Below, in pieces: positions 1 through 39,577 of a DNA stretch of 64,000 bases. Under the pieces are notes generated by a model, which made no database searches, was not told where the DNA came from, and worked only from the letters and a program-made list of their open reading frames with translations. The position numbers and the translations under genes are program-made. Origin of the DNA: a virus; the IMG/VR virus record IMGVR_UViG_3300032326_002451, positions 46,316 through 110,315 of that record; one strand, written 5' to 3'. Numbering within the stretch: the stretch's first letter is position 1; each line of letters begins with the position of its first letter.

Positions 1-5
1 GTTTT

Positions 6-6000: not shown

Positions 6001-7556
6001 AAAAAATAACAAATATAGAATACAGAATTAACATGACTGAAGGATGGACTGGTTCAGCTATAGTTACACCATATGTTTCTTCGCTTTATCATATAGAAGT
6101 TGAGCCATCAGAAAAAATATTATTCAGTAATGAAATCACAACAAATGGTTACTTAAATGAATATATATTGACTTCAAACGAAGATGAATACGAAACTGCT
6201 AAATTTGAGTGGGGAATTGTAAGAGGAAACAGCACTAATTGGAATAATTTTGAAAAAATTGTAGTTGGAAAGAACTCTGTCTTAGCACAAAGACAAAAAA
6301 CAATTCAAAATACCAATGAAGTAAATTATAATGGCCTTATTGCAATCAGTATAGATAATGGTTACATAAAATACCAAATTTATAAAGACGGAGAAATTTT
6401 CAAGTGGGATACAAATGCTACCATAGATGTTTTTGTTTCTGGAACTTTGATTTCTCAAAATTTTTATAGATATGATAATAATCTTGGACTTATTACTTTT
6501 GATAGTCCATTGTCAAGTCAAGACACTGTAATTGTTAATATTGTTTTACTTTCTTCAGATTACATATCTTTCGGAGAAAATACCACTACGAATGATTACA
6601 AAACATATCATGCAGAAAATGGTTCATGGATTAATGATGAGGACATTGTAGTTTATGTAAACAATGAAATTCAAAGAGGCAACTACGATCTTGATTCATT
6701 TTCTGGTGCAGTGGTTTTCAATAAATATCTAAATTCTACCGACAAAGTAAACATATTTGTAAAATTGTCCAATTCTTTTAGAATTGCAGTTAAAATTTAT
6801 GATTATGATACGTCAGTTTCAAAACCTATAGATTTTGCATTGACATATACAACTTTGAATAATCTGAATAAAGTTTCAGAGTATAGAAATTATGCTCTAC
6901 CAAGTATAGTTGATAATAAAATAACTTTAAAATCTACACTTATTACTGATAGTAATGGAGTTTCTATTAAGTATCCGATTTATGTCGAGTATGTATATGA
7001 TAGCTCTGATGGATCTTCTGAAAAATCTACGAACATTTACTGGTTCAGAACAAGAAGTGGTACTACCACACAAATTAATGTAACTAACCTATTGCCAAAT
7101 TATGACAATAGAGTTTTACAAAGACAATATGACCTCAATGGGCAAGATAATGTGTTTTTGTCTGGTGATGAAATATTTGTTAGGGTAGAACCCAAAAATA
7201 CATTCAAGACAGGCTTGCTATATACATCTGAAATTTACACATTGTCTTCAGTTTCAAAACCATACACTGTTGATGTGAAAATTAAATCATCAACAGCAGT
7301 GGTTTCTAATGCAAGCATTGGTTCAGGAAATACTTTGACTGCGTATTACGGTTACACAGATACTGATTTGTCTACTGATTCATCAATTGTGACTTGGTAT
7401 GATTGGTCAACAGGAACAAGAGTGGAAATTTCTACAGGAAATACATTAGATTCATCTTTTGTTATTGCTGGTAAAATTATTTCATTTGTAGTTCTTCCTT
7501 TCAATGGAGTTACATACGGAGATCAAGTAGAGAGTGATCTTGTAGTAATAGTATAA
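6..7556 (+). CDS. Giant virion protein with Asp-box, NGIY and von Willebrand A segments (5' end uncertain)
   Basis: At least 2,516 residues. The frame is open to the left edge of the window and the first usable codon is a TTG at position 6, so the gene may begin upstream. Asp-box (BNR) motifs typical of beta-propellers are visible: NDGNTW near residue 366, SLDGGLSF near 1380 and NDGDNW near 1440, among repeated GLY/GLW blade-like strands. One 'VLVKDQ...NGIYIV' phage-fibre module lies near residues 570-640. A von Willebrand A domain begins near 1670, with an intact MIDAS D-x-S-x-S (D1678, S1680, S1682) and VVTDGE near 1859. The C-terminal third has repeated beta domains with 'PLSSQDTV'-type strands that also occur in the 2,570-residue protein at 18957-26669. 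I infer a baseplate, tail or fibre protein that binds a ligand or metal at the cell surface. No enzymatic motif is seen. Confidence 0.8.
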   Translation: MSHKHLGSLSSPSKIDLTSDVILFGSSTYNEVQRVSNSSFVLVYPDNTLFSGNFDIYGMPSVYVNDLKLSENDYRFELDTTPCKIILKNSISQNSVIRVILPIFTQKELVAIDSNGNLAGSTITSAGYVYISDGVLEDRNPNDNNAELVYRNFSWSKSKYQTPELYLNDNKINPKYYTLNNDSALLYFDDTLPNISSYTYSNLKIKLSSVGKEFTENISSSNTQDINASSFSSGTLSNSRISNLSHNFYMRYKKNCTFTASKHLITGSGSTFFYPENTISDLQFNIATYSIFSSANFGNTNVLLGTQRGLMTSSSSLTPIKLSSNFNNDLGRPKDFQDNILHPDETNYFKETYMSTLQGKLFYTKNDGNTWTEIKLPYTTAERQAIVYDFDVSTEKVQETDTSFYYKTNLYVTTDNGLYYAQIREGYTEENWDWNLVNRYVINDTINYSVDNLTSSVEIVTKNIEIIPGENDLVTYDRNLYVGSNSDQYPGLYVGTASGLEQIFYEPVNGIFWIQDGKVNTNKNNLIWWSDYDVYHTHSSKYVSNENGAYWIPPFTDTNALFSPVYAATTANVTLSGNQTIDGQFLVDGDTVLVKDQDNEEENGIYIVSSGAWTRRTDFDSSLDYETEKRVEVQNGNLYGGSLWFLVPRDSFTINVDPIIWDIYKTILYSTFQYPYATSRPKIQNVIMRNNGDNEYFIITTDSIILVNDSGVRPVLTEFPWDTPFQGTLRNALSVRTSDANGLLYAVSDRGLFVSTSYLWADKNSITQTLNLTDHWNRVDNFFLDSDTLKLFDVNSGAQNNSFSLIPQYQIVLFNTAIEKGTNYYYERSFTDFYTDPWEQSFIDDNGNTYENRVVVYIDNEPTKIPYITDPSLGLIRFTSSVDSKYLNSVQVSISANNMYLTNIGQRTHEEIFIGVGKSEPIAVLFSENSISSDSIFLNQTIDSNIKILLLENGTNREVVYVKKIDNYANPVRVDLQYARSSAGPSFIFPEGSTVYSVSDSLSSSIENDLYGLLSNETYNLASDNNVNTEKLILGLQNEIPNLFDISPAAVISQTDTRGLKNVKYVNDFENDNLFDIADSYINENIGLEYSADDPAFEVKDISSITNLSTEGIDTIVSTDKGLWKFTGGIWKSLLPSEVYRFNFVKKLTDGSYIAASENGLFIGDNSYNFTKDSLFTQDVLDLEEGLWGNEYFRVYGKRDGLLFIKSPDTSFFTSEYVSELDNVATNGIAKLSSNRIIDSVLTSYDIIFACSDIGFYGICNGINSDVFSNSLTCKKLITNNPSGVTKYFKCFTPFITPTIPANNNTSNYLFILTDDGVLRVDNWKWCDPTSSTGATFNIDQRFLQGVQCYSSTLDVSESPDNVLPGKSKIFIGTEKGVYRSLDGGLSFEPTQKFNDLFLVIHNLEIFESTYLSNSSYVTNNVLVASTNMGIWYSVNDGDNWYLSGSATDDNEYPLLITEKPSNNVKTTENIAVDGYLAQTFVTKNSASTIDKVFVMLEVNTELSSNQYYNNSVTSNTLQAFLCNLDGNGKPDMSSVLASSSNTKNPKDIVKGDFSYFNFNYSASANSNIGLVIKETLAPNSISVVSWKKSNLQNAYLNGKAFTYTSPNWSVLDSDNDNDFLFKVFYSTESTQTETIVPVGNEDGSVIGWDSGVSRGVISTDTGRLTLDIRFLVSLIIDDSLSMQVSASNSNYEEKILELLTNIKDRTIKSVSSENQEFTAYDLWLADTITNHKTKPGFVRSLSQIENYINNLNQEGINTDLYSAIDIASVGMNPAAVNDLYIKLNDETNNVLRSEIVLDYLSQNTRLRLNDLTLQYQSETIINDWDETEAGITTSETARNLMLDRFSSTYIPLMIVVTDGENITYTNIDGILKNTELFWNNQGFDVLVFGLSGSDFQTSLIHLTQNGGYYFSLENDTDWDNVIDLLLHGGNKSLFKGSWSKEYYYDVPKYIKSVYADYTYSTGQLYDSECTVEFRYSEDYLNFTSWISLSSTTSYSIDKKITNIEYRINMTEGWTGSAIVTPYVSSLYHIEVEPSEKILFSNEITTNGYLNEYILTSNEDEYETAKFEWGIVRGNSTNWNNFEKIVVGKNSVLAQRQKTIQNTNEVNYNGLIAISIDNGYIKYQIYKDGEIFKWDTNATIDVFVSGTLISQNFYRYDNNLGLITFDSPLSSQDTVIVNIVLLSSDYISFGENTTTNDYKTYHAENGSWINDEDIVVYVNNEIQRGNYDLDSFSGAVVFNKYLNSTDKVNIFVKLSNSFRIAVKIYDYDTSVSKPIDFALTYTTLNNLNKVSEYRNYALPSIVDNKITLKSTLITDSNGVSIKYPIYVEYVYDSSDGSSEKSTNIYWFRTRSGTTTQINVTNLLPNYDNRVLQRQYDLNGQDNVFLSGDEIFVRVEPKNTFKTGLLYTSEIYTLSSVSKPYTVDVKIKSSTAVVSNASIGSGNTLTAYYGYTDTDLSTDSSIVTWYDWSTGTRVEISTGNTLDSSFVIAGKIISFVVLPFNGVTYGDQVESDLVVIV

Positions 7557-18655: not shown

Positions 18656-18957
18656 TAGACATACCTTGCATCTTCAACTTGAAAAAAACTTTTCCATGAA
18701 GATGTTACATTTCCATAAGTAAACCATGAATATTTCCACTTACCAATAACATCTATATCAAGGTCAATATAATAAATACCAGTACTTTCATTTACAATAG
18801 CTGGAGTACTTGCAGTTGTATATGTTGTATAGTTTGTTTCACCAGGTTTCTCAAGCTCAAATTGAATTGATTGAGGATTTGTCAAAATGCCATCAATATC
18901 TCTGATTCTTGCTTTAATTCTAATAGTTTGATTTGTTAAAATAACATCTGACTTCAT
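18655..18957 (-). CDS. Small beta-sandwich virion protein
   Basis: 100 residues with an alternating strand pattern like an Ig or BIG domain ('TIRIKARIRDIDG', 'GIYYIDLDIDVIGKWKYSW', 'WKSFFQVED'). It is one-base coupled at both ends to neighbouring virion genes (TAATG junctions at 18655 and 18957). Head-tail joining, decoration or fibre-attachment protein are all possible; no family is firmly recognised. Confidence 0.6.
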   Translation of the reverse strand: MKSDVILTNQTIRIKARIRDIDGILTNPQSIQFELEKPGETNYTTYTTASTPAIVNESTGIYYIDLDIDVIGKWKYSWFTYGNVTSSWKSFFQVEDARYV

Positions 18958-21900
18958 TAACTTGTGCTCCTATAATTTAAATCAACTTCAATAGTTTGTA
19001 CTTTAGAAAGTGTGCTGTTTATGTCCTCTAAAATTTCAATATCAACTTCAATAGTTTGTAGTTTTTCATACCATCCTACGACTGGAATGTGAATTACAGT
19101 GATTTCACTTTCAATAGTTTGCTTTCTTTCATACCAAGAATGGATATTTCCTGGGAATTGAGGAATCTTAAGTTTATGTCTGCCTTGTCTCTCAGCTGTT
19201 CTAATACCATAAGGTCTTATGAAACTTTCACTATATAGTTTGTGTAAAGTGAATTTTTTGGTTTTATAAAGATTAATATTGACTGTATCGGATGCAGTCA
19301 ATGGTGTATCGAATATCACCTTACCTTCTAACGGATAAAGTGTATATCCTGAACTTAGAATATTAGAGTTGACTATGACTTCTGCAAATGTGTAGACTGA
19401 TGAATCCCAGAAGTTGACATTTACTCCATCAATAGTAACAAATATTTCCGTACTCGAGCCGAAACCATTCAATCTGTAAAGTGATAAATCAAATTCGCCA
19501 TTGTGAACCCTTTGTTCACTACTTATGGCCCAAGGATAAATTCTGTCTCTTCTTACAAGTTCGTGATAACCAATTGCTTGAAGAGACTCAATTGTATATG
19601 GATAAATTCTTGATATTGCTTTTAACTCATGAAGACCTAATATCTCATCACTTATTATTGAATAAGGATTTATTCTTGATACAGTCGTTAGCTTATGCAA
19701 TCCAAGATTTTCAAGACTTGTTATTGTATATGGTGAAATTAAGTATCCAACTTTTTCTAAGATATGTAAACCTAAGTTTGAAATATCCTTTATTGCAGAT
19801 GGATAGATGTTATAGTTTGAATTAAGTGTATGTAATCCAATTTGTTCCAAACTTGCAATAGAGTAAGGTCTTATGTCTGAGAAGTAAACAAATCTGTGTA
19901 AACCTAATTTTTCATCATTTGAAACAGCATATGGATAAATATTTTTTACATTCGTTAGTAAATGCAAGCCCGTAGTTTGATCTGTAAATATAGATGTTGG
20001 CCTAATATTTATTGGTGGAATGAATATTGTGTGAAGACCAGTTTGTTCATTACTTACAATACTATAAGGAATAATTGGATATTCATATACAAGTCTATGA
20101 TTTGATGCTTTTTCAATAGTCTTGACAGGATATGGTTGTATATTTACAGATCCAGGTAATAATGTTGGTGGCTTCGGATATAAGTCTGATGGAGAAGGAA
20201 CAATTGGACCATAACCAGGCAGTGTTGGGAATGAATTGTTTAGGTAAATGTATTGACCATATCTCAAGGTCATGACACCACCTGTACCACTATCTACTAT
20301 CAATGAATATGGATATATAAATGCTCTTGTAGTAAGTCTGTGTCGCCCCAATCTTTCAACGCTTGATATTGAATATGGCTCTATGCCAATGTTGTATCTA
20401 ATCTGATGCAAACCAACATTTTGATTTGTAAGAATTGAATATGGGTAAATAGCCTTAATATTTGATAAAGTGTGAAGACCTAAGAATTCATTACTTCTAA
20501 TAGAGTAAGGATTGATCTGTATTCTGCCAGCCAGTGAATGATAGCCAGTTTTGCTGATATCTAATATTGTATACGGATAAATATTTTTATTAGAAGTAAG
20601 CCTATGTAACCCTAATATTTCATTAGACTTGATAGAGTATGGATATATTGCCTTTATGTTTGCAAGTGTATGCAATCCAAGAGTTTCACTTGAAACAATT
20701 GAATAAGGCAAGATATTGTTTGTACTTCTTAATCTGTGTAATCCAAGCTTTTCAACAGAAATTATTGTGTAAGGCAATATATTTTTGACTGTAGAAAGTG
20801 TGTGTCTTCCAAGATTTTCTGTTGATCTAACTGTATATGGATAAATATTATTGATAGATCTAAGAGTGTGAAGGCCTAATTTTTCATCAGAGACTATAGA
20901 ATAAGGAAGTATTGTAATATTTCCTAATAAACGATGTAAACCAAGTTTTTCTATTGACTTAATTGAGTATGGTCTTATGTCTACACCAGCAATAGAAAGT
21001 AAATGAACATTAGCTTTTTCAGTAGATAGTATTCTGTATGGATAAATATAATTTAAAGCACGTAATGTATGTAGGCCAGTCTTTTCAATAGATAAAATTG
21101 TGAAAGGATAAATATTTTTTGAAGTTGTGAGTCTATGCAAACCAAGTTTTTCAATTGACCTAATCGAATATGGCACTATTCCTCTTATTGAAGTAAGTAC
21201 ATGAAGGCCTAACTTTTCATTTTCCTTAATTGTGTATGGATATATATAAGCTAAACCACGTAATGTGTGTAGTCCTAATTTTTCTATAGATTGTATTGCT
21301 GATGGGAAAATGAAATTGCCACCAGTTGTAAGTATATGCCTTCCCAATCTTTCCGTAGTTCGAATAGCATAAGGCCTAATATTTGCCAGCGTATTCAAGG
21401 TATGAAGGCCTAAAAGTTCAGTGCTTACAATTCTATAAGGTAAGATATTTGTTACTGATGAAATCCTGTGTAATCCAAGCTTTTCATTTGTGATAACACT
21501 GTAAGGATAAATATTTTTTGCAGATGTAAGTCTGTGTAATCCTAAAATTTCATTTGATCTTATAGAATAAGGATTGATATTATTTCTTGCATTTAATCTA
21601 TGAATTCCAAGATTATCAATGCTTATGATTGAATATGGAATGATTGAACTAAATTTACCTAATCTATGTAAACCTAATTTTTCACTTGAAATTATTCTGT
21701 AAGGTAAAATATTTACATTTCCAGGTGAAAGTCTATGAACGCCCAATAATTCTGTTGATCTGATAGAATATGGTCTTATTCTCGCTAATGATGTAAGTCT
21801 GTGTCGTCCTAAATTTTCTAAACTTATGATTGTATATGGGATTATATTAATTCTTGAAGATAATCTGTGATATCCCAAACGATCAATTGTGAGCACAGAA

Positions 21901-24900
21901 TAAGGTCTTATATTTACAGATCCTGGCACTAAGTTATGAAGGCCTAACTTTTCCACTCCCAGGATTGATGCGGGTCTTATGTCTGACCCTAATGCGATTA
22001 AGACATTTTTACCAGAAACACGCTCTGTGCTAATTAATGAATAAGGTAATATATTTTTAAGTGATGTAAGAGTATTTCTGCCTAATTTTTCTAAACCTAA
22101 AATTGATTTTGGATAAATATTGTAAAGACTTCTTAAAGTGTGTAATCCAGTTTTTTCAGCAGTTGAAATACCTCTATTTGCTAAGTTAATAACAATTCCA
22201 CCAAAAGTAAGTCTTGGTAACCCCAATCTCTCCGCTGAAGGAATACCATAAACATAATCAACGAATTGAGCTTCAATATTGGTTAGGTGATCAAATGCAG
22301 AATCACTAAATGCTGTGATACCCATGTAACCTTTAGTGTAAGTGGTATCAGTTACAATTAAAGTAGCAGCAGTTACTAAGGATCCACCACCAGAGGCATA
22401 TAATTTAGCTGTTATTACACCGGAATCTGTCCATGTTACAATAATTCTATACCAAGTGTTTGGTATGACGAGTCCAGGTAAGTTGTACGAAGCTAAAGTT
22501 GTTGTTGTACCACCAATAGTTCTTCTTAAAGAGAATGATGGATTCCCAGTGGTATTTGCAGCGTTGACCACAGCAAAGTAACCATTTCTCACATCAGATG
22601 CTTGTACGCCAAAAGCTAAACCAGCTATACCATTACCGCTTAGAACTTGCAACCAACCTGCCCAGTAGAAGTCTGCGCCTCTGAGATATTCCAAAGGATA
22701 TGCAATTGTTGCAGTACCAGCTGTATTTGGGAATGCAGTAGATCTTCTTAAAGATTTTCCTTCAGGGTATAAACTGTAGGCTTGTTCCCATATAAACTGA
22801 TCACTATTTCCAAATGTAAATACATTTACATCATCTAATTTATCGTAAAATCTATTTCTAAATCTTAATCCTGATCCTGTTGACTCTACAGATAAAATAG
22901 AATATGGTTTTATAAATCTTAATAATTTATGCAAACCAAGTTTTTCTGTGTCTCTGATTGAGTAAGGATTGATATTTCTTTGACTTTTAAGAGTATGTCT
23001 GCCCAAATTCTCAAGAGTTTTTTGAGTGTAAGGTCTAATATTGCTTGTAAGTTTTGTCTGCAAAGAAACATTTTCAAATGTTCGAATAGAGTATGGCAGT
23101 ATGTTTGTTAACGCACGTAATCTCTGTCTGCCAATATATTCAATAGACCTAACACTATAAGGAACAATTGATTTTATGGTAGATAATCTGTGCTGACCAA
23201 GACTTTCTACAGAAATAATTCTGTATGGTCTTATATTTGAAATACCCGTGGACAATCTTACAAATGAAGATGTTTTTTCTGTTGAAATCAAAGAAATATG
23301 AATTATATTTGATATACCACGTAAAGTATTTCTGCCTAATCTTTCAATAGATCTGATACTATATGGATAAATATTCTTTAGTGTTCTAAGGTTATGTATT
23401 CCTAAAAACTCATTAGATATAATTCTATAAGGTCTAATGTTGTATGCATTTTTAGATACAGTATGGTATCCATTTCTCTCTGTCGATAAAATAGTTCTTG
23501 GATAAATATTGTAATTTGAAGAAATATTTTGCCTGCCAATAATTTCAATGCTTCTTATTGAATATGGTAGAATATTTTTTCTGGTAGTAAGTCTATTAAC
23601 ATTTGTAGTTTTTTCTGTAGATCTAATTGTGAATGGAAGAATATATGCCGCAAGTCCGGAAATTATTTGTCTTCCTAAAAATTCTGTTGACCTTAAGGAA
23701 TATGGTCTTATATTTACTCCACTTACTGTAAATCTAACAAAACTTGAGACAAATTCCATAGATTTTATTGAATATGGTCTTATGGAAGCAATATTTGATA
23801 ATGTGTTTAGCCCAAGTTTTTCTGAATCCTTGACGGGATAAGGTCTTATGAATAATGATCCGGCTGAAAGTCTATTGTATCCAACTCTTTCAGTGCTTCT
23901 TATGCTGTACGGAATTATATTAGCAATTGTGGAAAGTCTATGTACTCCAAGTCTTTCATTAGAATAAATTCCATAAGGAATTATAGATCTAAAAGCTGAT
24001 AATGCATGGTGCCCAGTTCTTTCAATGGACAAAATCCTATATGGGTAAATGTTTCTTATCGAAGATAATCTTGTGATATTTCCAATTTGTTCAATAGATC
24101 TTATGCCGTAAGGTCTAATGAATGAAAGACTTGAAAGTCTTTGCTGGCCAAGATTTTCAATTGACCTAACACTGTACGGAATAATATTTTTTATATTTGA
24201 TAAATTGTGAATTCCAAGCTTTTCAATAGAATTTATTGTGTAAGGATATATATTTCTTAAAGATGAAAGTCTATTGAAACCACTTACAAGTTCTATCTGC
24301 TTTATCGAATAAGGAATTATAGATCTTATGGTAGATAATCTATTTTGGCCCAGTAATTCTGTAGATGTTATTGAGTATGGTAAAATATTTTTTATTGATG
24401 ATAATCTGTGATATCCAGTACTTTGAGTTGTAAGAATTCTATATGGATATATATTGTAAGCTGCTTTAAGTAAAGTTGCTTGCCCAAATCTTTCTAAATC
24501 AAATATAGAGTACGGGATAATATTTTTTCTTGTTGTTAGGACATGATATCCATTGTTCTGAACACTAAATATAGAATATGGTCTTATGTTATTATTGCTG
24601 CTTAGTCTCTGAATTCCAATAAGTTCTGTTGTTCGTAAACTATATGGATTTATTGTTACTTGACCTGAAGATAATCTATTTCTTCCTAATCTTTCTGTTG
24701 ATAAGATTGGGTAAGGTATAAGTTGACTTCCTTGAGCAAAAAATCTATTATAAGGCGCCAAAAATTCTATTGACTTAATACTATAAGGAATAATATTAAT
24801 TGCGCCTGGTGTTAATCTTGACAGGTTGCCTAATTTTTCTATTCCTAAAATACTCGGAGGAAGGATATTATTTTGAGCTGATAATCTTACTGCATTATTG

Positions 24901-26669
24901 GTTTTTTCTGAAGAAAAAATAGAATAAGGTCTTATTGAAGAAGCTCCAGGAGATAATGTAGCCAAACCTAATTTTTCTAAATTTAAAATTCCTGAAAAAC
25001 CTTCAATAAATTGAGCTTCTATATTTGTTAAGTGGTCAAAAGCAGTATCACTGAATGCTGAAATACCCATATACCCTGTTGTATATGCAGTGTCTGTAGC
25101 AGTCAAAATACCAGCAGTGACTAAAGACCCACCTCCAGATGCATACAGTTTAGCTGTAATTAATCCAGAAGATGACCAGGTGACAATTATTCTGTACCAT
25201 GTATTAGGAATTACAAGTCCTGATAAATTGTATGAAGCTAATGTGGTAGTTGTACCGCCTACTGTTTTTCTCAGTGAAAATGATGGATTTGCTACTGTAT
25301 TAGCAGCATTTATAACCGCAAAGTATCCATTTCTGACATCTGAAGCTTGAACTCCAAAAGCCATGCCAGCAATTCCATTACCACTAAGAATTTGCAACCA
25401 TCCAGCCCAATAAAAATCTGGACCCCTATCGTACTCCATTGGCAAAACTATAGTTGCTGTGCCAGCAGTGTTTGGAAATGCAGTAGATCTTTTTAAGGTT
25501 TTTCCTTCAGGATATAAACTATACGCTTGTTCCCAAACAAATTGGCTTGTGTCTCCATAGTTAAAAATATTTACTTCATCAAGCGTGTCATAAAATCTAT
25601 TTCTAAATTTATTAATTCCCAATTTTTCAATTGATTGTATAGATCTTGGGTAAATTGAATTTGAAGCTGATAGTCTTTGGTTACCAATTGTTTGATTACT
25701 TGAGATACTTGCTGGATTTATTCGTTTTTGTGTACGTAAATTTGTTCTTCCAAGAATCTCATTAGATCTTATTGCATATGGATTTATATTTTTAGTGCTT
25801 GCTAATCTTGATCGACCTAAATTTTGTGCAGAAACTACAGAATGAGGCCTGATTCGAGCAGCGCCTTTTAATATTGTTGTACGCCCAAGAAATTCTAAAG
25901 TCTTGGCTGAGTATTGATTGATATTTCTGACAACACGATGTCGTGTAGAAACAAATTCAGTAGAGCGAATTCCATATGGATTTATGTTATCTGCAGTCGT
26001 TCCACCAGTGTAGGTTACAACAGCATGTATTCTATCAATTTTTGCAAAATCTATGCCACCTGTAAAACCATCTTTGAAAAGATTGGTTGACAAAACTACA
26101 CCAAAGTTTGAACTTTTTATTTCACTTGGTGTCCATGTAGTTCCCCAAAGATAACTTGTATTACCTAATGTTTCAGTTTCTTCTGTAATGTTCCAATAAG
26201 GAGGTGTTATAGAATTAGCTGTAAACCAGTCAGTGCCTGTCTCATTTGTACCATCTTTAGATAAGTAAACTCTGTCTAAAGAACAGCCATAAACAGCTTC
26301 ACCTACTTCATTCAGTTTGTGTTCAACGTATACTTGTATTCCTGTAATAGTAGCGTCATTAGGTATAGATGATGCTCCAGAACCATTTTTTACAATTAAA
26401 TAAGATGAAATACCATTGTCAATTACAATAACATTTACATTAATTGTTCCAATAGTGTCTGCTAATATTTGAAATCCATATTGATTGTCAGAAGCAAATA
26501 AATTTTGAGGATTGCCACTTGGAAAAGTAAATCCAACATCATTATTTATAAGATTCGTTCCATCAGAAGCCCAAGTTAAATAACCATTGTTGGCATTTCC
26601 TTGAACATAGTACATTCTGTCATGTAATTTTTGAGCATAAGCTGAGAATGTAATTGTTACTGTAGGCAT
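18957..26669 (-). CDS. Giant 22-residue-repeat tail or fibre protein with two LamG-like domains
   Basis: 2,570 residues. Residues 1-225 form a beta domain with 'IPNDATITGIQVYVEHK', a pattern seen in secreted and fibre proteins. From about 228 to 2495 I count about 79 copies of a 22-residue unit (range 20-25) with consensus NIxPYSIxSxExLGxHRL. The unit array is interrupted by two LamG/concanavalin-like domains (about 355-555 and 1268-1473) that are near-duplicates, a proline-rich insert near 2130, and near 2400 a beta domain with 'PLTASDTVNINL' shared with the protein at 6-7556. The last 60 residues hold three 'QTIE' repeats. I infer a very long solenoid or fibre displayed on the virion with glycan-binding LamG knobs. 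The ATG at 26669 has a GGTGAT ribosome site. I know of no named family for the repeat. Confidence 0.8.
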   Translation of the reverse strand: MPTVTITFSAYAQKLHDRMYYVQGNANNGYLTWASDGTNLINNDVGFTFPSGNPQNLFASDNQYGFQILADTIGTINVNVIVIDNGISSYLIVKNGSGASSIPNDATITGIQVYVEHKLNEVGEAVYGCSLDRVYLSKDGTNETGTDWFTANSITPPYWNITEETETLGNTSYLWGTTWTPSEIKSSNFGVVLSTNLFKDGFTGGIDFAKIDRIHAVVTYTGGTTADNINPYGIRSTEFVSTRHRVVRNINQYSAKTLEFLGRTTILKGAARIRPHSVVSAQNLGRSRLASTKNINPYAIRSNEILGRTNLRTQKRINPASISSNQTIGNQRLSASNSIYPRSIQSIEKLGINKFRNRFYDTLDEVNIFNYGDTSQFVWEQAYSLYPEGKTLKRSTAFPNTAGTATIVLPMEYDRGPDFYWAGWLQILSGNGIAGMAFGVQASDVRNGYFAVINAANTVANPSFSLRKTVGGTTTTLASYNLSGLVIPNTWYRIIVTWSSSGLITAKLYASGGGSLVTAGILTATDTAYTTGYMGISAFSDTAFDHLTNIEAQFIEGFSGILNLEKLGLATLSPGASSIRPYSIFSSEKTNNAVRLSAQNNILPPSILGIEKLGNLSRLTPGAINIIPYSIKSIEFLAPYNRFFAQGSQLIPYPILSTERLGRNRLSSGQVTINPYSLRTTELIGIQRLSSNNNIRPYSIFSVQNNGYHVLTTRKNIIPYSIFDLERFGQATLLKAAYNIYPYRILTTQSTGYHRLSSIKNILPYSITSTELLGQNRLSTIRSIIPYSIKQIELVSGFNRLSSLRNIYPYTINSIEKLGIHNLSNIKNIIPYSVRSIENLGQQRLSSLSFIRPYGIRSIEQIGNITRLSSIRNIYPYRILSIERTGHHALSAFRSIIPYGIYSNERLGVHRLSTIANIIPYSIRSTERVGYNRLSAGSLFIRPYPVKDSEKLGLNTLSNIASIRPYSIKSMEFVSSFVRFTVSGVNIRPYSLRSTEFLGRQIISGLAAYILPFTIRSTEKTTNVNRLTTRKNILPYSIRSIEIIGRQNISSNYNIYPRTILSTERNGYHTVSKNAYNIRPYRIISNEFLGIHNLRTLKNIYPYSIRSIERLGRNTLRGISNIIHISLISTEKTSSFVRLSTGISNIRPYRIISVESLGQHRLSTIKSIVPYSVRSIEYIGRQRLRALTNILPYSIRTFENVSLQTKLTSNIRPYTQKTLENLGRHTLKSQRNINPYSIRDTEKLGLHKLLRFIKPYSILSVESTGSGLRFRNRFYDKLDDVNVFTFGNSDQFIWEQAYSLYPEGKSLRRSTAFPNTAGTATIAYPLEYLRGADFYWAGWLQVLSGNGIAGLAFGVQASDVRNGYFAVVNAANTTGNPSFSLRRTIGGTTTTLASYNLPGLVIPNTWYRIIVTWTDSGVITAKLYASGGGSLVTAATLIVTDTTYTKGYMGITAFSDSAFDHLTNIEAQFVDYVYGIPSAERLGLPRLTFGGIVINLANRGISTAEKTGLHTLRSLYNIYPKSILGLEKLGRNTLTSLKNILPYSLISTERVSGKNVLIALGSDIRPASILGVEKLGLHNLVPGSVNIRPYSVLTIDRLGYHRLSSRINIIPYTIISLENLGRHRLTSLARIRPYSIRSTELLGVHRLSPGNVNILPYRIISSEKLGLHRLGKFSSIIPYSIISIDNLGIHRLNARNNINPYSIRSNEILGLHRLTSAKNIYPYSVITNEKLGLHRISSVTNILPYRIVSTELLGLHTLNTLANIRPYAIRTTERLGRHILTTGGNFIFPSAIQSIEKLGLHTLRGLAYIYPYTIKENEKLGLHVLTSIRGIVPYSIRSIEKLGLHRLTTSKNIYPFTILSIEKTGLHTLRALNYIYPYRILSTEKANVHLLSIAGVDIRPYSIKSIEKLGLHRLLGNITILPYSIVSDEKLGLHTLRSINNIYPYTVRSTENLGRHTLSTVKNILPYTIISVEKLGLHRLRSTNNILPYSIVSSETLGLHTLANIKAIYPYSIKSNEILGLHRLTSNKNIYPYTILDISKTGYHSLAGRIQINPYSIRSNEFLGLHTLSNIKAIYPYSILTNQNVGLHQIRYNIGIEPYSISSVERLGRHRLTTRAFIYPYSLIVDSGTGGVMTLRYGQYIYLNNSFPTLPGYGPIVPSPSDLYPKPPTLLPGSVNIQPYPVKTIEKASNHRLVYEYPIIPYSIVSNEQTGLHTIFIPPINIRPTSIFTDQTTGLHLLTNVKNIYPYAVSNDEKLGLHRFVYFSDIRPYSIASLEQIGLHTLNSNYNIYPSAIKDISNLGLHILEKVGYLISPYTITSLENLGLHKLTTVSRINPYSIISDEILGLHELKAISRIYPYTIESLQAIGYHELVRRDRIYPWAISSEQRVHNGEFDLSLYRLNGFGSSTEIFVTIDGVNVNFWDSSVYTFAEVIVNSNILSSGYTLYPLEGKVIFDTPLTASDTVNINLYKTKKFTLHKLYSESFIRPYGIRTAERQGRHKLKIPQFPGNIHSWYERKQTIESEITVIHIPVVGWYEKLQTIEVDIEILEDINSTLSKVQTIEVDLNYRSTS
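22250..22865 (-). repeat. LamG-like domain copy 2 inside the repeat protein
   Basis: The same domain again ('RNRFYDKLDDVNVF' to 'FDHLTNIEAQF'), about 2.7 kb downstream of copy 1. The residues are almost the same, while many third codon positions differ, indicating an old internal duplication under purifying selection. Confidence 0.75.
25005..25605 (-). repeat. LamG-like domain copy 1 inside the repeat protein
   Basis: About 200 residues beginning 'RNRFYDTLDEVNIF' and ending 'FDHLTNIEAQF', with 'FYWAGWLQILSGNGIAG' and 'NTWYRIIVTW' strands typical of jelly-roll LamG/concanavalin folds. It replaces the tail of one 22-residue unit. Confidence 0.75.
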
Positions 26670-26700
26670 TAGATCACCATGCCATTACACATAAAAACAG

Positions 26701-26773
26701 TTAAACAAAAGCCCAATCTATGTGACAGACTGCATTGTCTTGAACGAATTTTAGATTGGGTATTTTTGTTTAA
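26701..26773. other. Long imperfect hairpin in the leader of the giant repeat gene
   Basis: TTAAACAAAA-G-CCCAATCTA (26701-26720) pairs with TAGATTGGG-TA-TTTTTGTTTAA (26752-26773). The 31-base apical part has its own small CAGAC/GTCTTG stem. On the minus strand the arm is followed by a T-rich stretch, so it may be a second terminator or a structured 5' leader. It is too short for a tRNA. Confidence 0.5.
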
Positions 26774-26839
26774 ATAAAATCTCATACTTGATGCCTTGAC
26801 CATCACGAAAATATATAATATTATTTTTCTGGATAAGCA

Positions 26840-26880
26840 ATAAAAAAGCCTAATAATAATTGCTTATTATTAGGCTTATT
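26840..26880 (-). terminator. Strong intrinsic terminator after the 80-residue gene
   Basis: Perfect 14-bp stem AAGCCTAATAATAA / TTATTATTAGGCTT (26846-26859 with 26864-26877), TTGC loop, and on the minus strand a TTTTTT run. It separates the 26896-27741 genes from the giant repeat gene. Confidence 0.9.
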
Positions 26881-26895
26881 GAGTTTTAAAAGGTC

Positions 26896-27138
26896 TTAGT
26901 TGAGTTTTACGACTTCTTCAGATTGTATTGCTTGAGCTTGCAATACTTGTGCTTCTCTAATTTGTTTAATATCTTCTTCGGTGATATTACCAAATTGAGA
27001 TTGAAGTGCAATAAGTCTTTGTCTTTCAGTAATGCGATCAGCTGCTTCTAAGACTTCTTGATGTGCAAGATCACGTATCTTAATTTTAGCATGCATATCG
27101 TCTACTAATTCTTGTTCAGTAATATTTAATAAGTTCAT
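26896..27138 (-). CDS. Small helical protein, unknown function
   Basis: 80 residues, predicted mostly alpha-helical, rich in Glu, Gln, Ala and Ile with no Cys or membrane segment (e.g. 'HQEVLEAADRITERQRLIAL', 'DIKQIREAQVLQAQA'). It has a good ribosome site (AAGGAA) and lies 9 bases after the 197-residue virion-type gene, with a strong terminator right behind it. Context and the heptad-like helices suggest a fibre chaperone or a small structural protein, but no family is recognised. Confidence 0.65.
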   Translation of the reverse strand: MNLLNITEQELVDDMHAKIKIRDLAHQEVLEAADRITERQRLIALQSQFGNITEEDIKQIREAQVLQAQAIQSEEVVKLN

Positions 27139-27147
27139 GATGATTCC

Positions 27148-27741
27148 TTATATCTTGAAGATCTTGTTTACGGAAGTATCCCAAACAATGGTGATATCAC
27201 CACCGTTACCACTGACTGGCATACCAATAGCTGAATCAAAGAAAGCAATAAGATCCATTGAAGTTTCATAAGAATAGTTGGTAGCAGCAGCAGCAGTAGG
27301 GTTGAGTCCACTTGTGTCTCTGTAAATAACAAAAGCATTGATAGCTGCACCAGATGCAACAGCCAATTGAGTTGTTGAAGCAGCACTTGCATTAGCTACA
27401 CCATTTCCATAGTTTGTAGCAACAATTCCTAATGTATTTGCAGCACCAGCTAACCCACCATAAGAAGCTTGTATAGATCTGTGGCCTGTAGGAATTTGGC
27501 TCAACCAAGTAATCGCATAACCTGCTCCTGCAGGTGCAACTCCAGGGTTTGTTCCATCATCTGTACCAGATACAGGGTTCCAAGCATAACCTGAAGCTCC
27601 AGTAGCTGACCAAACGCCTTGTGTGCCTACGCCAGCGTTTATAAACATGACCTTATAGGATGAACTATTGTTCCATGATAACGTTGTCGGTTGCTGTGTC
27701 AAGAACTTATTTCTTGCCCATGGATATAAAAAATTGCCCAT
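27148..27741 (-). CDS. Probable virion structural protein (fibre-associated)
   Basis: 197 residues, rich in Gly, Ala, Ser and Thr. The N-terminus 'FLYPWARNKFLTQQ...YKVMFINAGV' resembles a widespread phage structural family in which a short helix (ARxxFL) is followed by a strand 'IKVALVD'. The rest is beta-rich with 'TTQLAVASGAAINAFVIYRD' and 'GGDITIVWDTSVNKIFKI', the last being like the C-termini of head-fibre or tail-accessory proteins. The ribosome site is AAAAGGAA. It is probably a minor capsid or tail decoration protein. Confidence 0.65.
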   Translation of the reverse strand: MGNFLYPWARNKFLTQQPTTLSWNNSSSYKVMFINAGVGTQGVWSATGASGYAWNPVSGTDDGTNPGVAPAGAGYAITWLSQIPTGHRSIQASYGGLAGAANTLGIVATNYGNGVANASAASTTQLAVASGAAINAFVIYRDTSGLNPTAAAATNYSYETSMDLIAFFDSAIGMPVSGNGGDITIVWDTSVNKIFKI

Positions 27742-33718: not shown

Positions 33719-36700
33719 TTAGTCTTCTACAGTTTTATATTCTACTTTAAACTTTATATTCCTGACTTTTCCATTTGATGTTATGTTGCTATTTGATAAG
33801 GAATCAGATGTTGGTATTTTTACAGCTATCGCAAATCTATTACTGTTAGCCGTTGAATACTTATCTATTTTTGCTGATCCAAGATAGAAAGCATTACTAT
33901 TGTCAGCTCCTAAAAGTTGCCATGTACTTGGATTAGAATTAAATAATCCATCTTTATCAACAGAAACCCATTCAATTGAATCAGTGCCTATAATGTATTC
34001 TGTAAGTTGAGCATAAGTGATAGTTCTTGGTAGTCCTAACTTGATTCTGTAAACTGTATCTTGGTTTACTGTTCCATTTACAACTTTTACAGTCAATTGA
34101 GGGTTTAATTCAGAGTCTGCATTCAAGTCTTCTGCTCTTGCCCACGCATATTCTGCACCAGTTCCAGTAACAACATAAACTCCGTTCTGAGATTTATTAC
34201 TGTCTTGATTTTTGACTAAAATTCTGTGACCTTTTTCAAGAATTACCCCATCAATAGTTGATGGAGGGCTTGAAAGATTTATATTAACATTGCTCGAAGT
34301 TGTTGCACAGTTACAGTCAGCGAGTTTATTGCTTAGATTCACCTTGGCCCAATAAATAGAGCTACTTCCTATTGTTGGAGTTGCTGTTTCATCATATACA
34401 AGAGCGTAATATCCTGTCGAGGCTAAACCAGAAGTAACATTACATTTTTTTCCGATTGATATTTCGCTCGACTCATCTAAGTTTTCATGTCTCGTAAGAT
34501 AAAAAGAAATGTTGGAGTCTGCTTTGTAGATACCATTTTGAGTGTTGTTTGTCTGACCAAGTAATAAAATCGTTTGTCCTAACGTTATTGAAGGATCAGA
34601 AAACGAAGATACTAATGAAGTATTTGAACCTATAATTTTTGTACATGAGGTGTAATTATTTATTTTATCTTGCTCAAACCAATCAATATCACTTGATCCC
34701 AAAGTTGTGCTACTTGGATCAAAATACAGCTCATAGTCTTTATTCGAGTTTAAGTCAGTCACATAACATGAAGTAATTGAAAATCCTGCAGTATTTGTAC
34801 TTCCTGACGCTAAAACTCTTGAATAAATAGGGGCAATATTTTGAGTAAATCTTCCAACATATCTTTCATTAGATGCAGCTTGAGATAGTAAAAGAACTTT
34901 ATCATTAGCAGCAAGAGTGACGCCATCAGTCGCATCTGGGTAGGCTGTTGTTAAGGCTAATCCGCTATAAACTGAAGACGAAACTGCCTTTACGTCAATA
35001 GTTTGACCGTAACCTGACTTAATCCAATTGATGGCTGTGTTTCCACTTGTTGATCCAATTGAATAGAAAGCTGATGGTAAAATTAGTTCATAAGTGGTGT
35101 TACCGTAAACTACTCTGCCTAATGATTTTAGGTCAGATGAGCTTGAAAAATCGCCACTTCTTGAAAGCTTATAAACAGGATTGCTATAAACTGAATAAAT
35201 ACCATTTTGTTTTTTATTAGTTTGGTCTTTGACGAGTATTATATCATTTATAGCTGGAGCATATGAATTAATAATCCCACCAAAGTCGCTAAAATCAGTT
35301 ATTGCTACTCCAGTTGATGTGTTGCATGAAAAGACACTTACACTTTCATATGAGTACCAAGATTTATCACCATTCACACGAGATGTATTGTTTGGATTGT
35401 AGTGTAAGAAGAACTTAGCAGCTCCATATAATACATTCAAAGGAGTTAAAGGGTTAGTGAAGTTCGTATTATATGATAAAGTGACAGGCGTGTATCCAAG
35501 ATTTGCAAATTTATAAATCTTTTGATCTCGTTTACCTGATTTATTATGCTGTATTAGATTATTTTTATCATCATAATAAGATGTCTGTATTGTAGTAGCC
35601 AAGCCTGAATCATTATTGTTAAGCAATAAGATGTTTTGATTAGCTTGTAAATTCAGACTTTGGAACCATTTGTCTATTGTAAATCCTGATCCAGAAGATA
35701 TTGCTTTCTCTAAATATACAGTACCAGTGAATAATCCTAAAGTTTCACCAGTCCCAGGCATGTAAATATTTGACTCAAAATACGATGCTGTAAATGCTGA
35801 TCCAACTTTTTTGTAATATCCATCAGAGGATTGTCTTGAAGTGTAAAAATATTCATTTACATTAGAAACTTCAATAATTCTATCAATATCTATTTTGTAT
35901 GATTTTGAATTATCGTATGCTTTGTACCAATGATTTCTGTCAGTGTTATATTTAGCTTCTGTAGTTGTGCCTAATCCAGTTGCGTTTGATATTTGGAAAT
36001 AAATATTATCAGGAGTGTATTTGTTTAGTGTTATAGCAGAACCAGAATTGATGAAGTATTTGTTATCAAGTACTTGCTCTACAGTGTAAAATCTATTGAG
36101 AAGAGATTTTGATTGCTCATTATATCTTGGTGTATCAAAATCAGAATACAAATAAACATACAAAGTGTCAGTAGATGATGTAGCAAATCCAGAGTATGGT
36201 GATATATACCCAAATTGCGGATATACATCATAATCAACTTTATTATAAAAATTAGTTTGGTTGCCTTGAGCATCTATGACAAAAACATCTAAACTTGGAT
36301 AATTATATTCATTCCAACAATATGTGTCAGATGTTCCAGCTTTAACAACGTGTATAGCAGGATCAAATATAGTATCTCCTGGAGCAATTACAAGTCTCTT
36401 ATAATGATCTATATGGCCATTGGCAACTCTTTGCTTTACACGTCTTAGATAATATGTCCATGTATTTGGGTTTATGTGAACAATTTGATAGATACCGTTG
36501 ACTTGATTTGGAAGTCCATTGTTCCAAACATCTTCATTGCTATCTTGATATATAGCTCTGTCGCCAATTTCATAGTAATAAATGACTGAAGGATCATCTA
36601 ATATTGTGTAAAGCTGCCTTCCTCTATTGACAGTTAGCATATCACCGTCAACAGTATCTTTGTTAGTCAAATCACCTGCTATGAAATGTTGGATAGGTGC

Positions 36701-39577
36701 TAAAGATGGGAAGTTAAACAAATTGTTATAGTCAATACTCAATACAACATCTGACCCAGAGGTAAAATATTCTTGTCCTAAATCGTATTGATTATCATCA
36801 TTTGGAGTTATTGCTGTAGAACCTAATGCTGATATGTTGTTAGCGTAACCTACAACACCTTTCATGTATATGACAGAGCTTCCGAATGAAGAGCCACCAA
36901 TCATATACCCGCTATCAACTAAAACTTTTGTTGGTCTTTCATACGGAGAACTTGTGATTTTTTGGTTTGTTCCAGCTAAATATTCTGTTGAAACATCAAA
37001 GTCAGTATGCTTAACAAAGTAAACACTTCCTCCAACTCCGGTCAATGTTGCTCTGTAAATACCATTGTATGAAGATGCACAAGAGTTGCCTGTTCCGATG
37101 TAAAATAGAACGTCTTCATTGTTAGAAATTAAGGTGTTATTTGAAATTTTAGTGGAAATTGCTGTTCCTGAACTGATTGGCAGTCCAGCAATTGTAGAGC
37201 TTTTGTATACAGCCTTAACTTTGTAGTTTTGATAGTCTTGAGTGTGCCAGCTAAAGTCAATTTCTTGTAAGAACGCACTACTAAGATTATCAGTTGCAAA
37301 AAAACTATTAATGTTTTCTTTGCTTGGGTAATTTATTTCAGGAACATATATGTTTGCAAATTTTGAATTGGCATAAGTTGTAGATCCATAAGCAGAAGTG
37401 TTTCTTGCGTATAGTACTCCTCCAATTTCATTTCTCATGTTTGGGGTAACTGTGAAAATATCTGTATTTGTGGATGTAATGTTTCTTAAGATATCTGCAG
37501 ACCAAGTTACAAGAGAATCAGAGTAATTGAAAACAGCCTTTTGTGGTGATGATAAAGTTGCATCATATAGGCCATTTATTTTTTTGTTAGAAGTATTAAC
37601 AAGAACTTTATCAGATGTATTTACACCTACTGAAAAATCATCCGGCGATATATAGACACTATTAAATTTATCTACCACAGTTGAAGAATCAACAGTTATT
37701 GTCGGTGCACTTGTTATATTGACAAATTCTACATCTGCAGTACCAGCTGATACATTATCTTCGTTTGAGTATAAGAAATAAGTAGCTCCAGTACCAGATG
37801 AGTTTGCAATTGAGCCATTTACAATCGAATAAAGAGAATAAAAACTCAATGCTTTAGTAGAACCTAATGCGCTACTACCAACAACATAAATACCATTTTG
37901 TGATTGTGTAGTGGTTTGATTGCTTACTAAAACTCTTTGAGAAATTGCTATACCACTATTTGCAAATTTAGAAGAATTTACGCTATTAAAATTGTTTATC
38001 TCTGAAATAGTGATGTTTGAAACTGGTTCGTAAAAATAATGTGTGAATCTATTATCAACAGAGATACCATCTAAATTTAGCACAAAATTAGCATTGTAAG
38101 TTGTTTCTCTGTTCATATAAAAATAAGAACTACCGATAGAGCTTAGGCTATTTTTAGCACTTACAATATAGGGTGTTATTTCAGCAGCTGTATCAAAATT
38201 TGCGTGTCTTTTCCAAACAGATGTATTTCCAAGCCCAACACTGAAAATATTATATACACCACTGTACGCACTATTATAATGCTTGACTAATATTTTTTCA
38301 TTTGCTACAGTTAGTGTAGTAACACCAGTTCCAGAAACAATGTGTGAAGGTGCGCTTGTAAAAGTACCAGCATTACTTCCAAAATCAAAAGTAAATGCAA
38401 TGGCACTTGTGTTTGGTATTTCGTAGTACCAATCTGCAGCATATGAGCTGTAATAATGAGTAGCATCAACCCAGTCAGAAGCTAAAGTAGTAGCAATTCC
38501 AGGCGTTGAATCTGGAATAATTACTCCACTTTCTCCTCCACCACCCTCTTCATAAGCTGTCATTGCTGTAAAGTCTGAAGTAAGATAATGGCGGTAATAT
38601 TTACCACCAAAAGTGGTCCCAGTCATGACTTGAACACTTACTGGAATTTGTTTTGTAATATTATAAACTGCAAAATCCCAGAAATTATCAATAGGGTCTG
38701 TACTTGTTCTTGTATCAACTATTGTATTTTTATTAGAAGCATATAAACTTGAAAGATAATATATGCCATTTTGAGATTTAGTAGTTTGATTTTTGACTAA
38801 AATTCTGTCATTTACTTCAAGTTCTACATTGTCAATAAAATTAGTTTGTGATGATAGTCCAGCTCCAGAAGATTGAAGATTTTCAGTCGTAGCAGCAACA
38901 ACACTATTAAGTTGATAAATATTTGCCCTACTTACCCACTTTATAGAAGTAGTTCCAGCTCCCACAAATTGAAATGGACTATAACCTGATAAATAAGAAA
39001 AATACGATGAAGCTCCAACACCAACAATTTTTCCAGCTGTGTAAATGTCTTCTCCAAGATGATATGAAAAACCTGAGCTTCCTGTTCCAGTTTTCTGAGC
39101 TAATATTTTATATAAACCATTCTCATTTTTTGTTGTTTGAGACTTAACTAAAATATTATTTCCTGAAGATATTTTGTATCCATCTATATACAAAGGAGCA
39201 ACTAATCTTTGTATGCCTCCCAAAGTTTCAAAAGACAAATTTAGATTAGTTGCTACATATGCGTTTGGCAATTGTTCGATATTGAACGTATCGAGAGGTG
39301 TGATTCTAAATTCAAATCCTAAATCTTCTGTTATAGAGACTGCATCAGAAGATTTTATGACTGGAAATTCACTTCCACCTGTGTAAATATCTGCAAATGA
39401 ATTATCTAACCAAATCTTTATATCTTCTACACTTGAGTTGATCCACTTAAGTTTAAAGATCCTTTTGCTCCATGAATTAGCCGTAGCTGTACCCATACCA
39501 GCAAAAGGAATCTCTTTATTTACTTCACTTTGTAAATCTGTAGTGCTTATTTCTGACCAAATCAGTGCGTGAGACAT
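33719..39577 (-). CDS. Giant NGIY-repeat tail or fibre protein
   Basis: 1,952 residues, beta-rich. I count about 11 copies of a module whose core is 'D(K/R)ILVKNQTTKxQNGIYxV' followed by an aromatic/Arg strand and an Asp-rich turn, e.g. 'VWKRHANFDTA', 'LSRSGDFSSSSDL', 'YAWARAEDLNADSE'. The same module occurs once in the protein at 6-7556. These modules are known from phage tail fibre and baseplate proteins; they have no assigned catalytic role. The N-terminal 150 residues differ and could attach to the tail. The start is ATG at 39577 without a clear ribosome site; the PhoH gene ends 18 bases upstream. Confidence 0.8.
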   Translation of the reverse strand: MSHALIWSEISTTDLQSEVNKEIPFAGMGTATANSWSKRIFKLKWINSSVEDIKIWLDNSFADIYTGGSEFPVIKSSDAVSITEDLGFEFRITPLDTFNIEQLPNAYVATNLNLSFETLGGIQRLVAPLYIDGYKISSGNNILVKSQTTKNENGLYKILAQKTGTGSSGFSYHLGEDIYTAGKIVGVGASSYFSYLSGYSPFQFVGAGTTSIKWVSRANIYQLNSVVAATTENLQSSGAGLSSQTNFIDNVELEVNDRILVKNQTTKSQNGIYYLSSLYASNKNTIVDTRTSTDPIDNFWDFAVYNITKQIPVSVQVMTGTTFGGKYYRHYLTSDFTAMTAYEEGGGGESGVIIPDSTPGIATTLASDWVDATHYYSSYAADWYYEIPNTSAIAFTFDFGSNAGTFTSAPSHIVSGTGVTTLTVANEKILVKHYNSAYSGVYNIFSVGLGNTSVWKRHANFDTAAEITPYIVSAKNSLSSIGSSYFYMNRETTYNANFVLNLDGISVDNRFTHYFYEPVSNITISEINNFNSVNSSKFANSGIAISQRVLVSNQTTTQSQNGIYVVGSSALGSTKALSFYSLYSIVNGSIANSSGTGATYFLYSNEDNVSAGTADVEFVNITSAPTITVDSSTVVDKFNSVYISPDDFSVGVNTSDKVLVNTSNKKINGLYDATLSSPQKAVFNYSDSLVTWSADILRNITSTNTDIFTVTPNMRNEIGGVLYARNTSAYGSTTYANSKFANIYVPEINYPSKENINSFFATDNLSSAFLQEIDFSWHTQDYQNYKVKAVYKSSTIAGLPISSGTAISTKISNNTLISNNEDVLFYIGTGNSCASSYNGIYRATLTGVGGSVYFVKHTDFDVSTEYLAGTNQKITSSPYERPTKVLVDSGYMIGGSSFGSSVIYMKGVVGYANNISALGSTAITPNDDNQYDLGQEYFTSGSDVVLSIDYNNLFNFPSLAPIQHFIAGDLTNKDTVDGDMLTVNRGRQLYTILDDPSVIYYYEIGDRAIYQDSNEDVWNNGLPNQVNGIYQIVHINPNTWTYYLRRVKQRVANGHIDHYKRLVIAPGDTIFDPAIHVVKAGTSDTYCWNEYNYPSLDVFVIDAQGNQTNFYNKVDYDVYPQFGYISPYSGFATSSTDTLYVYLYSDFDTPRYNEQSKSLLNRFYTVEQVLDNKYFINSGSAITLNKYTPDNIYFQISNATGLGTTTEAKYNTDRNHWYKAYDNSKSYKIDIDRIIEVSNVNEYFYTSRQSSDGYYKKVGSAFTASYFESNIYMPGTGETLGLFTGTVYLEKAISSGSGFTIDKWFQSLNLQANQNILLLNNNDSGLATTIQTSYYDDKNNLIQHNKSGKRDQKIYKFANLGYTPVTLSYNTNFTNPLTPLNVLYGAAKFFLHYNPNNTSRVNGDKSWYSYESVSVFSCNTSTGVAITDFSDFGGIINSYAPAINDIILVKDQTNKKQNGIYSVYSNPVYKLSRSGDFSSSSDLKSLGRVVYGNTTYELILPSAFYSIGSTSGNTAINWIKSGYGQTIDVKAVSSSVYSGLALTTAYPDATDGVTLAANDKVLLLSQAASNERYVGRFTQNIAPIYSRVLASGSTNTAGFSITSCYVTDLNSNKDYELYFDPSSTTLGSSDIDWFEQDKINNYTSCTKIIGSNTSLVSSFSDPSITLGQTILLLGQTNNTQNGIYKADSNISFYLTRHENLDESSEISIGKKCNVTSGLASTGYYALVYDETATPTIGSSSIYWAKVNLSNKLADCNCATTSSNVNINLSSPPSTIDGVILEKGHRILVKNQDSNKSQNGVYVVTGTGAEYAWARAEDLNADSELNPQLTVKVVNGTVNQDTVYRIKLGLPRTITYAQLTEYIIGTDSIEWVSVDKDGLFNSNPSTWQLLGADNSNAFYLGSAKIDKYSTANSNRFAIAVKIPTSDSLSNSNITSNGKVRNIKFKVEYKTVED
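33990..39250 (-). repeat. About 11 diverged NGIY modules
   Basis: Recurring 'ILVKxQTxxxQNGIY' cores spaced 90-250 residues apart. Some copies are worn (NGLYDAT, YSGVYNI, YNGIYRA) and one (NERYVGRF) has lost the NGIY signature. DNA identity between copies is low. Confidence 0.75.

What the first reader, a model, noticed from the sequence alone, without database searches (positions are those of the whole stretch)
18957..26669. A 79-copy 22-residue repeat builds a very long virion protein
The consensus NIxPYSIxSxExLGxHRL recurs almost without break over about 2,270 residues, interrupted by two LamG-like knobs and two other inserts. I know of no named repeat family with this pattern. The fixed P-Y, E, G and final L, with variable 4-residue joins, suggest a solenoid or a stack of identical hairpins, and hence a molecular ruler or an extended fibre.
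Basis: partly seen in the sequence, partly recalled or inferred. Interest (0 to 1): 0.85.

Follow-up and report, generated by a model that had tools for sequence, protein, structure and literature searches.

The report
Very long phage tail-fibre repeat protein
This large phage encodes a 2,570-residue protein built from about 78 copies of a 22-residue repeat; the repeat is a divergent form of one that is widespread in phage tail proteins but has no Pfam or NCBIfam model, and it probably forms a stiff rod of set length that holds two sugar-binding-like knobs away from the virion.

Summary
The minus-strand ORF 18957-26669 (2570 aa) carries 78 units (residues 229-2500), interrupted by two 82%-identical LamG-like knobs and two other inserts. 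Shuffled sequence gives about 0 units.

The repeat is not new in kind. A profile built only from other viruses' IxPxGIxSxEAFGxPxL arrays finds the window protein at E=2.6e-73. These arrays fall in PHROG families 13352 and 8501 ("minor tail protein"), occur in 52 mycobacteriophage records, and were found in 227 viral arrays but only 8 in 257 Gb of cellular genomes. Neither Pfam nor NCBIfam has a model. One other phage ORF has at least 88 units.

A 61%-identical orthologue in a 316-kb phage has the same 72 units from the first knob onward, with 71 of 72 joint lengths equal (at most 47 in shuffles); only the stretch before the first knob differs (6 versus 13 units).

AlphaFold2 with a deep alignment gives a confident all-beta repeat stack (pLDDT 86) without a significant PDB match. 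Covariation and quantised unit lengths (20/22/23/25) support a beta-hairpin at each joint.

Most likely it is a tail-associated fibre presenting lectin-like knobs. Virion location and fold remain inferred.

The parts
18957..26669 (-). Whole gene, 2570 aa, 288 kDa, predicted pI 9.8, no Cys in the array
25986..26669 (-). N-terminal domain (aa 1-228); aa 100-226 shared with another array protein (L129) and with a 'tail tubular protein A' (MW202478)
25605..25985 (-). Array segment 1, 6 units (13 in the orthologue)
25005..25604 (-). Knob 1 (aa 356-555), LamG-like by weak Pfam match and low-confidence beta prediction
22863..25004 (-). Array segment 2, 32 units, same number and joint lengths in the orthologue
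22260..22862 (-). Knob 2 (aa 1270-1470), 82% identical to knob 1
20334..22259 (-). Array segment 3, 29 units, nearly all with His15
20142..20333 (-). Insert 3 (aa 2113-2176), 72% identical in the orthologue
19491..20141 (-). Array segment 4, 10 units
19221..19490 (-). Insert 4 (aa 2394-2483), 67% identical in the orthologue
19170..19220 (-). Last unit (aa 2484-2500)
18957..19169 (-). C-terminal tail with three QTIE motifs and the stop codon
17699..18655 (-). Second gene downstream: tail-tube-like protein (PF18906 Phage_tube_2, 31.2 bits, cut-off 27)

Best explanation
The protein is a tail-associated fibre or stalk. About 78 divergent copies of a phage minor-tail repeat (PHROG 13352/8501 type) stack into a stiff all-beta rod. 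In each unit the strand around H15-L17 turns back through the 3-8 residue joint onto N22-I1-x2 of the next unit, and neighbouring units pack through positions 4, 7 and 14. A beta domain caps the N-terminus, and two LamG-like knobs sit at fixed heights along the rod and probably bind host surface glycans. The spacing from the first knob to the C-terminus is fixed; the segment before the first knob is adjustable. Shown: the repeat, its membership of the phage repeat family, the fixed spacing, the conserved knobs. Inferred: the rod, the virion location, glycan binding.
For: HMM from other viruses' units: window E 2.6e-73, orthologue 2.3e-95, reversed and shuffled controls above 4. Position profile trained on 1718 foreign units finds 49 window units (shuffles 0.02). 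PHROG 'minor tail protein' matches and tail-gene position in mycobacteriophages. Fixed array: 72 units in both orthologues from knob 1 on, 71/72 joint lengths equal, shuffle mean 35.8 and maximum 47 of 10,000. Knobs are the most conserved large parts (75-84% against 54-60% for arrays and 46% for the N-domain). AF2 of eight units: pLDDT 86, pTM 0.81, strands in every unit. Unit lengths quantised at 20/22/23/25, with 21 and 24 rare (988/675/860/50 against 58/53). Covariation across the joint (16-2', 18-0', z 5-8) and between neighbouring units (14-14', 7-4', 14-7', z 4-5) against controls with shuffled unit order. A Laminin_G_3 domain (E 4e-16) heads another array of at least 88 units.
Against: No virion proteomics. 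AF2 is known to over-predict beta-solenoids for perfect repeats (PMC11795689), and with a three-row alignment the array did not fold (pLDDT below 30). No significant PDB fold match. The LamG-like assignment of the knobs is below the Pfam cut-off. No known tail-fibre tip or attachment domain was recognised, and host and virion morphology are unknown.
Confidence: 0.68

Rival explanations
1. Molecular ruler: the array is laid out along the tail or another long structure during assembly and its unit count sets that structure's length.
For: 72 units and 71/72 joint lengths conserved over deep divergence; tail-tube-like gene nearby.
Against: Total length differs by 7 units and 138 residues between orthologues. 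Beta rather than helical prediction. In annotated relatives the tape measure is a separate gene. Array sizes in the family range from a few to 88 units. Lectin-like knobs have no obvious role in a ruler.
Confidence: 0.1
2. Whisker or decoration on the tail shaft or the head, not a tail-tip fibre: the same rod, but anchored along the tube or capsid and serving general adhesion to cells or particles.
For: Gene lies beside a tail-tube-like gene rather than in a recognised tail-tip cluster; a second repeat protein lies elsewhere among large structural-looking ORFs. Other jumbo phages carry whiskers along the tail (PMC5259590, abstract).
Against: Mycobacteriophage relatives are the last minor-tail genes before the lysis genes, a place usual for tail-tip and fibre proteins. 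Position in this virion not tested.
Confidence: 0.15
3. The array is a flexible or disordered linker, and the AF2 fold is the known beta-solenoid artefact.
For: AF2 bias for repeats (PMC11795689); array unfolded with a shallow alignment.
Against: Strongly conserved hydrophobic positions I1, I6, L12, L17; unit lengths quantised rather than continuous; 71/72 joints of equal length; covariation across joints and between neighbours; repeats well diverged, unlike the artefact cases.
Confidence: 0.07

Closest known systems
PHROG 13352 / PHROG 8501 'minor tail protein' repeat arrays (mycobacteriophages Thumb, phiT46-1, Cosmo, Marvin and relatives; many uncultured phages)
   Same: I-x-P-x-x-I-x-S-x-E-x-[FL]-G core, period 20/22/23, arrays often headed by a beta or LamG domain, tail gene context
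   Different: Window units use Y4, L12 and H15 where the common form has T/S4, F12 and P15; 78 units against a median of 10; knobs inside the array; C-terminal units not within tblastn reach of phage records
L115-type array protein (IMG/VR): Laminin_G_3 plus at least 88 units
   Same: LamG-like domain plus very long array; FGTHxL units with His15
   Different: LamG at the N-terminus rather than inserted in the array; incomplete at the contig edge; a different virus
Curlin repeats and other beta-helices (pectate lyase, left-handed beta-helix, ice-binding)
   Same: Short repeat (about 22 residues in curlin), predicted stacked beta; weak Foldseek neighbours
   Different: No significant structural match (PDB E above 0.2), different conserved residues
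Leucine-rich repeats (Leptospira LIC10831, LIC11098)
   Same: Similar spacing of P, I and L in a 22-23 residue unit; profile E 0.0012
   Different: Lacks the LxxLxL and Asn core; the fold search gave LRR chains only at E 0.9 or worse

Membership tests
PHROG 13352/8501 minor-tail repeat family | Sequence profile match with controls | tested here: met
   PHROG 8501, E 1.1e-8; E 2.6e-73, 37 domains; shuffled and reversed above 4
PHROG 13352/8501 minor-tail repeat family | Tandem period of 20/22/23 residues | tested here: met
PHROG 13352/8501 minor-tail repeat family | Tail gene neighbourhood | tested here: met
   (tail-tube-like gene two genes downstream), similar order in L003; relatives
PHROG 13352/8501 minor-tail repeat family | Protein present in virions | not testable with these tools
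   needs mass spectrometry; none found in the papers searched
LamG / concanavalin-like domain (knobs) | Pfam match above the curated cut-off | tested here: not met
   PF22237 14.9 and 14.3 bits against a cut-off of 27
LamG / concanavalin-like domain (knobs) | Jelly-roll fold | tested here: inconclusive
   about nine strands but pLDDT about 40-64 with a three-row alignment
Leucine-rich repeat | LxxLxLxxN core and horseshoe fold | tested here: not met
Tail tape measure protein | Length scales with tail length; mostly helical | tested here: inconclusive
   beta prediction; tail length unknown; relatives have a separate tape measure gene

The most novel reading that the evidence does not exclude
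The repeat is a phage-specific structural module with a fold not yet solved (a beta stack with a hairpin at each joint and unit lengths quantised at 20/22/23/25), used by many unrelated phages as a length-programmable fibre rod; the window protein is an extreme case, with knobs held at exactly conserved heights.
Probability: 0.45. Interest if true: 0.72.

Novelty: new variant of a known kind. Interest (0 to 1): 0.5.

Why it matters
The repeat is common in phage tail proteins, nearly confined to viral contigs, and present in cultured mycobacteriophages, yet it is absent from Pfam and NCBIfam and no solved relative was found. If the rod model is right, it is a simple modular fibre whose length is set by unit count and whose joints follow discrete length rules, testable in tractable phages. 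The window protein shows that a very large array can keep its unit number and joint lengths over deep divergence.

Tried and rejected
tblastn of the C-terminal units against phages found nothing even at E 10, while a more divergent stretch found mycobacteriophages weakly; a degenerate DNA pattern then exposed the family. Pfam zinc-finger and ion-channel matches are short and below cut-off. The LRR resemblance was rejected for lack of the core and of a fold match. A three-unit super-period (joint pattern 6-5-5 between the knobs, z about 4) is weak in the wider family and was not pursued. The second AF2 run (N-domain plus knob) failed for lack of relatives. Paper searches for the motif or for a solenoid minor tail protein found none.

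Full report
Observation. The minus-strand ORF 18957-26669 encodes 2570 aa. An iterated profile finds 77 units above 8 bits, 78 with one degenerate unit counted, over residues 229-2500; shuffled copies of the protein average 0.03. No DNA-level tandem repeat remains, so the array is old.

What the repeat is. Pfam and NCBIfam have no model for it. PHROG 8501, 'minor tail protein', matches at 1.1e-8. Together they hold 227 viral arrays with a median of 10 units, whereas the 22-residue pattern in 257 Gb of cellular genomes gave 34 stretches of which only 8 ORFs are arrays. A profile trained on 1718 foreign units finds 49 units in the window protein against 0.02 in shuffles, and an HMM of 281 foreign two-unit segments scores the window protein at 2.6e-73 and its orthologue at 2.3e-95, with reversed and shuffled controls above 4. 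Canonical arrays match PHROG 13352 at 1e-61 to 1e-115. The repeat is therefore a divergent member of a widespread phage tail repeat that has no Pfam or NCBIfam name. The window array is not the longest: ORF L115 has at least 88 units behind a Laminin_G_3 domain and runs off its contig.

Relatives of the whole protein. One orthologue was found, 2708 aa, in a 315,852-base virus record, with topoisomerase-II-like ORFs on one side and ORFs of 324 and 364 aa on the other, against 318 and 364 aa in the window. Both genomes also carry a second protein with 11 such units, whose repeats match L115 and L067 at about 1e-16. The N-terminal domain (aa 100-226) recurs in the canonical array protein L129 and in a 'tail tubular protein A' that bears a different tandem repeat.

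Length. From the first knob onward both orthologues have 72 units, and 71 of 72 joints have equal length; 10,000 shuffles reach at most 47. Orthologous unit cores share on average 9.6 of 17 residues. Only the segment before knob 1 differs, 6 versus 13 units. Position 5 is mostly Ser in the window and Gly in the orthologue, across the array. The knobs are 75-84% identical between and within the genomes, the arrays 54-60%, the N-domain 46%.

Fold. AF2 on eight window units with an 84-row alignment gives pLDDT 86 and pTM 0.81, all beta, with strands at unit positions 6-8 and 15-19 and a bridge or short strand near position 1. Foldseek finds no PDB match below E 0.2 and, among viral predictions, one uncharacterised Caudovirales protein at 1.8e-4. 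AF2 is known to over-predict beta-solenoids for perfect repeats (PMC11795689); that paper found that natural families with diverged repeats agreed across methods. With only three aligned sequences AF2 did not fold the array. Two kinds of evidence that do not use AF2 support order: unit lengths are quantised at 20, 22, 23 and 25 with 21 and 24 rare, and residues on either side of the joint covary in the pattern of a beta-hairpin (16-2', 18-0'), while 4, 7 and 14 covary between neighbours, against controls that shuffle unit order within each protein. Joint lengths 3/5 and 6/8 would fit 3- and 4-residue turns lengthened by residue pairs; this is inference. If the stack has the usual 4.8 A rise of a beta-solenoid (general knowledge), 78 units would give about 37 nm; also inference.

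Function. Annotated relatives are minor tail proteins: in Thumb and phiT46-1 the repeat gene is the last minor-tail gene after the tape measure and before the lysins. In the window a tail-tube-like gene lies two genes downstream. A stiff rod presenting lectin-like knobs at fixed heights fits best. Whisker and ruler are the main rivals. Virion presence, position and glycan binding are not shown.

Novelty. The repeat family is known as PHROG protein families, but no paper describing the repeat was found in the searches made; the library is incomplete. The window protein is a new variant: divergent units, very many copies, internal knobs.

Noticed in passing
L012:34-2976 (own genome, contig bases 34-2976, minus strand); orthologue in L143: A second protein with 11 of the same repeats and an unrelated C-terminal half, conserved in the 316-kb phage.
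   Followed up: partly
L136:5812-7770 (MW202478.1): A 'tail tubular protein A' that starts with the window's N-terminal domain followed by a different tandem repeat (TGTAKTTTFTKxxATL).
   Followed up: partly
window 33719-39577 and 3-7556: Two giant proteins (1952 aa and at least 2517 aa) that share a domain matched by PHROG 2647/11518/24595 (head decoration, tail fibre).
   Followed up: no
L003:21465-23198 and 26299-27297, minus strand: ORFs that look DnaK-like and DnaJ-like by their first residues, near the orthologous locus in the jumbo phage; not searched.
   Followed up: no
window 18975-19121 (residues 2517-2565): Three QTIE(V/S)(D/E)(I/L) motifs at the C-terminus; canonical array proteins L048 and L112 also end in short repeated motifs.
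   Followed up: no
window 18957-22259, units after knob 2: His15 is nearly invariant in the units after knob 2 but variable before it, in both orthologues.
   Followed up: partly
window 22863-25004: Between the knobs joint lengths follow a 6-5-5 pattern for four rounds, and units three apart are more alike than chance (z about 4).
   Followed up: partly
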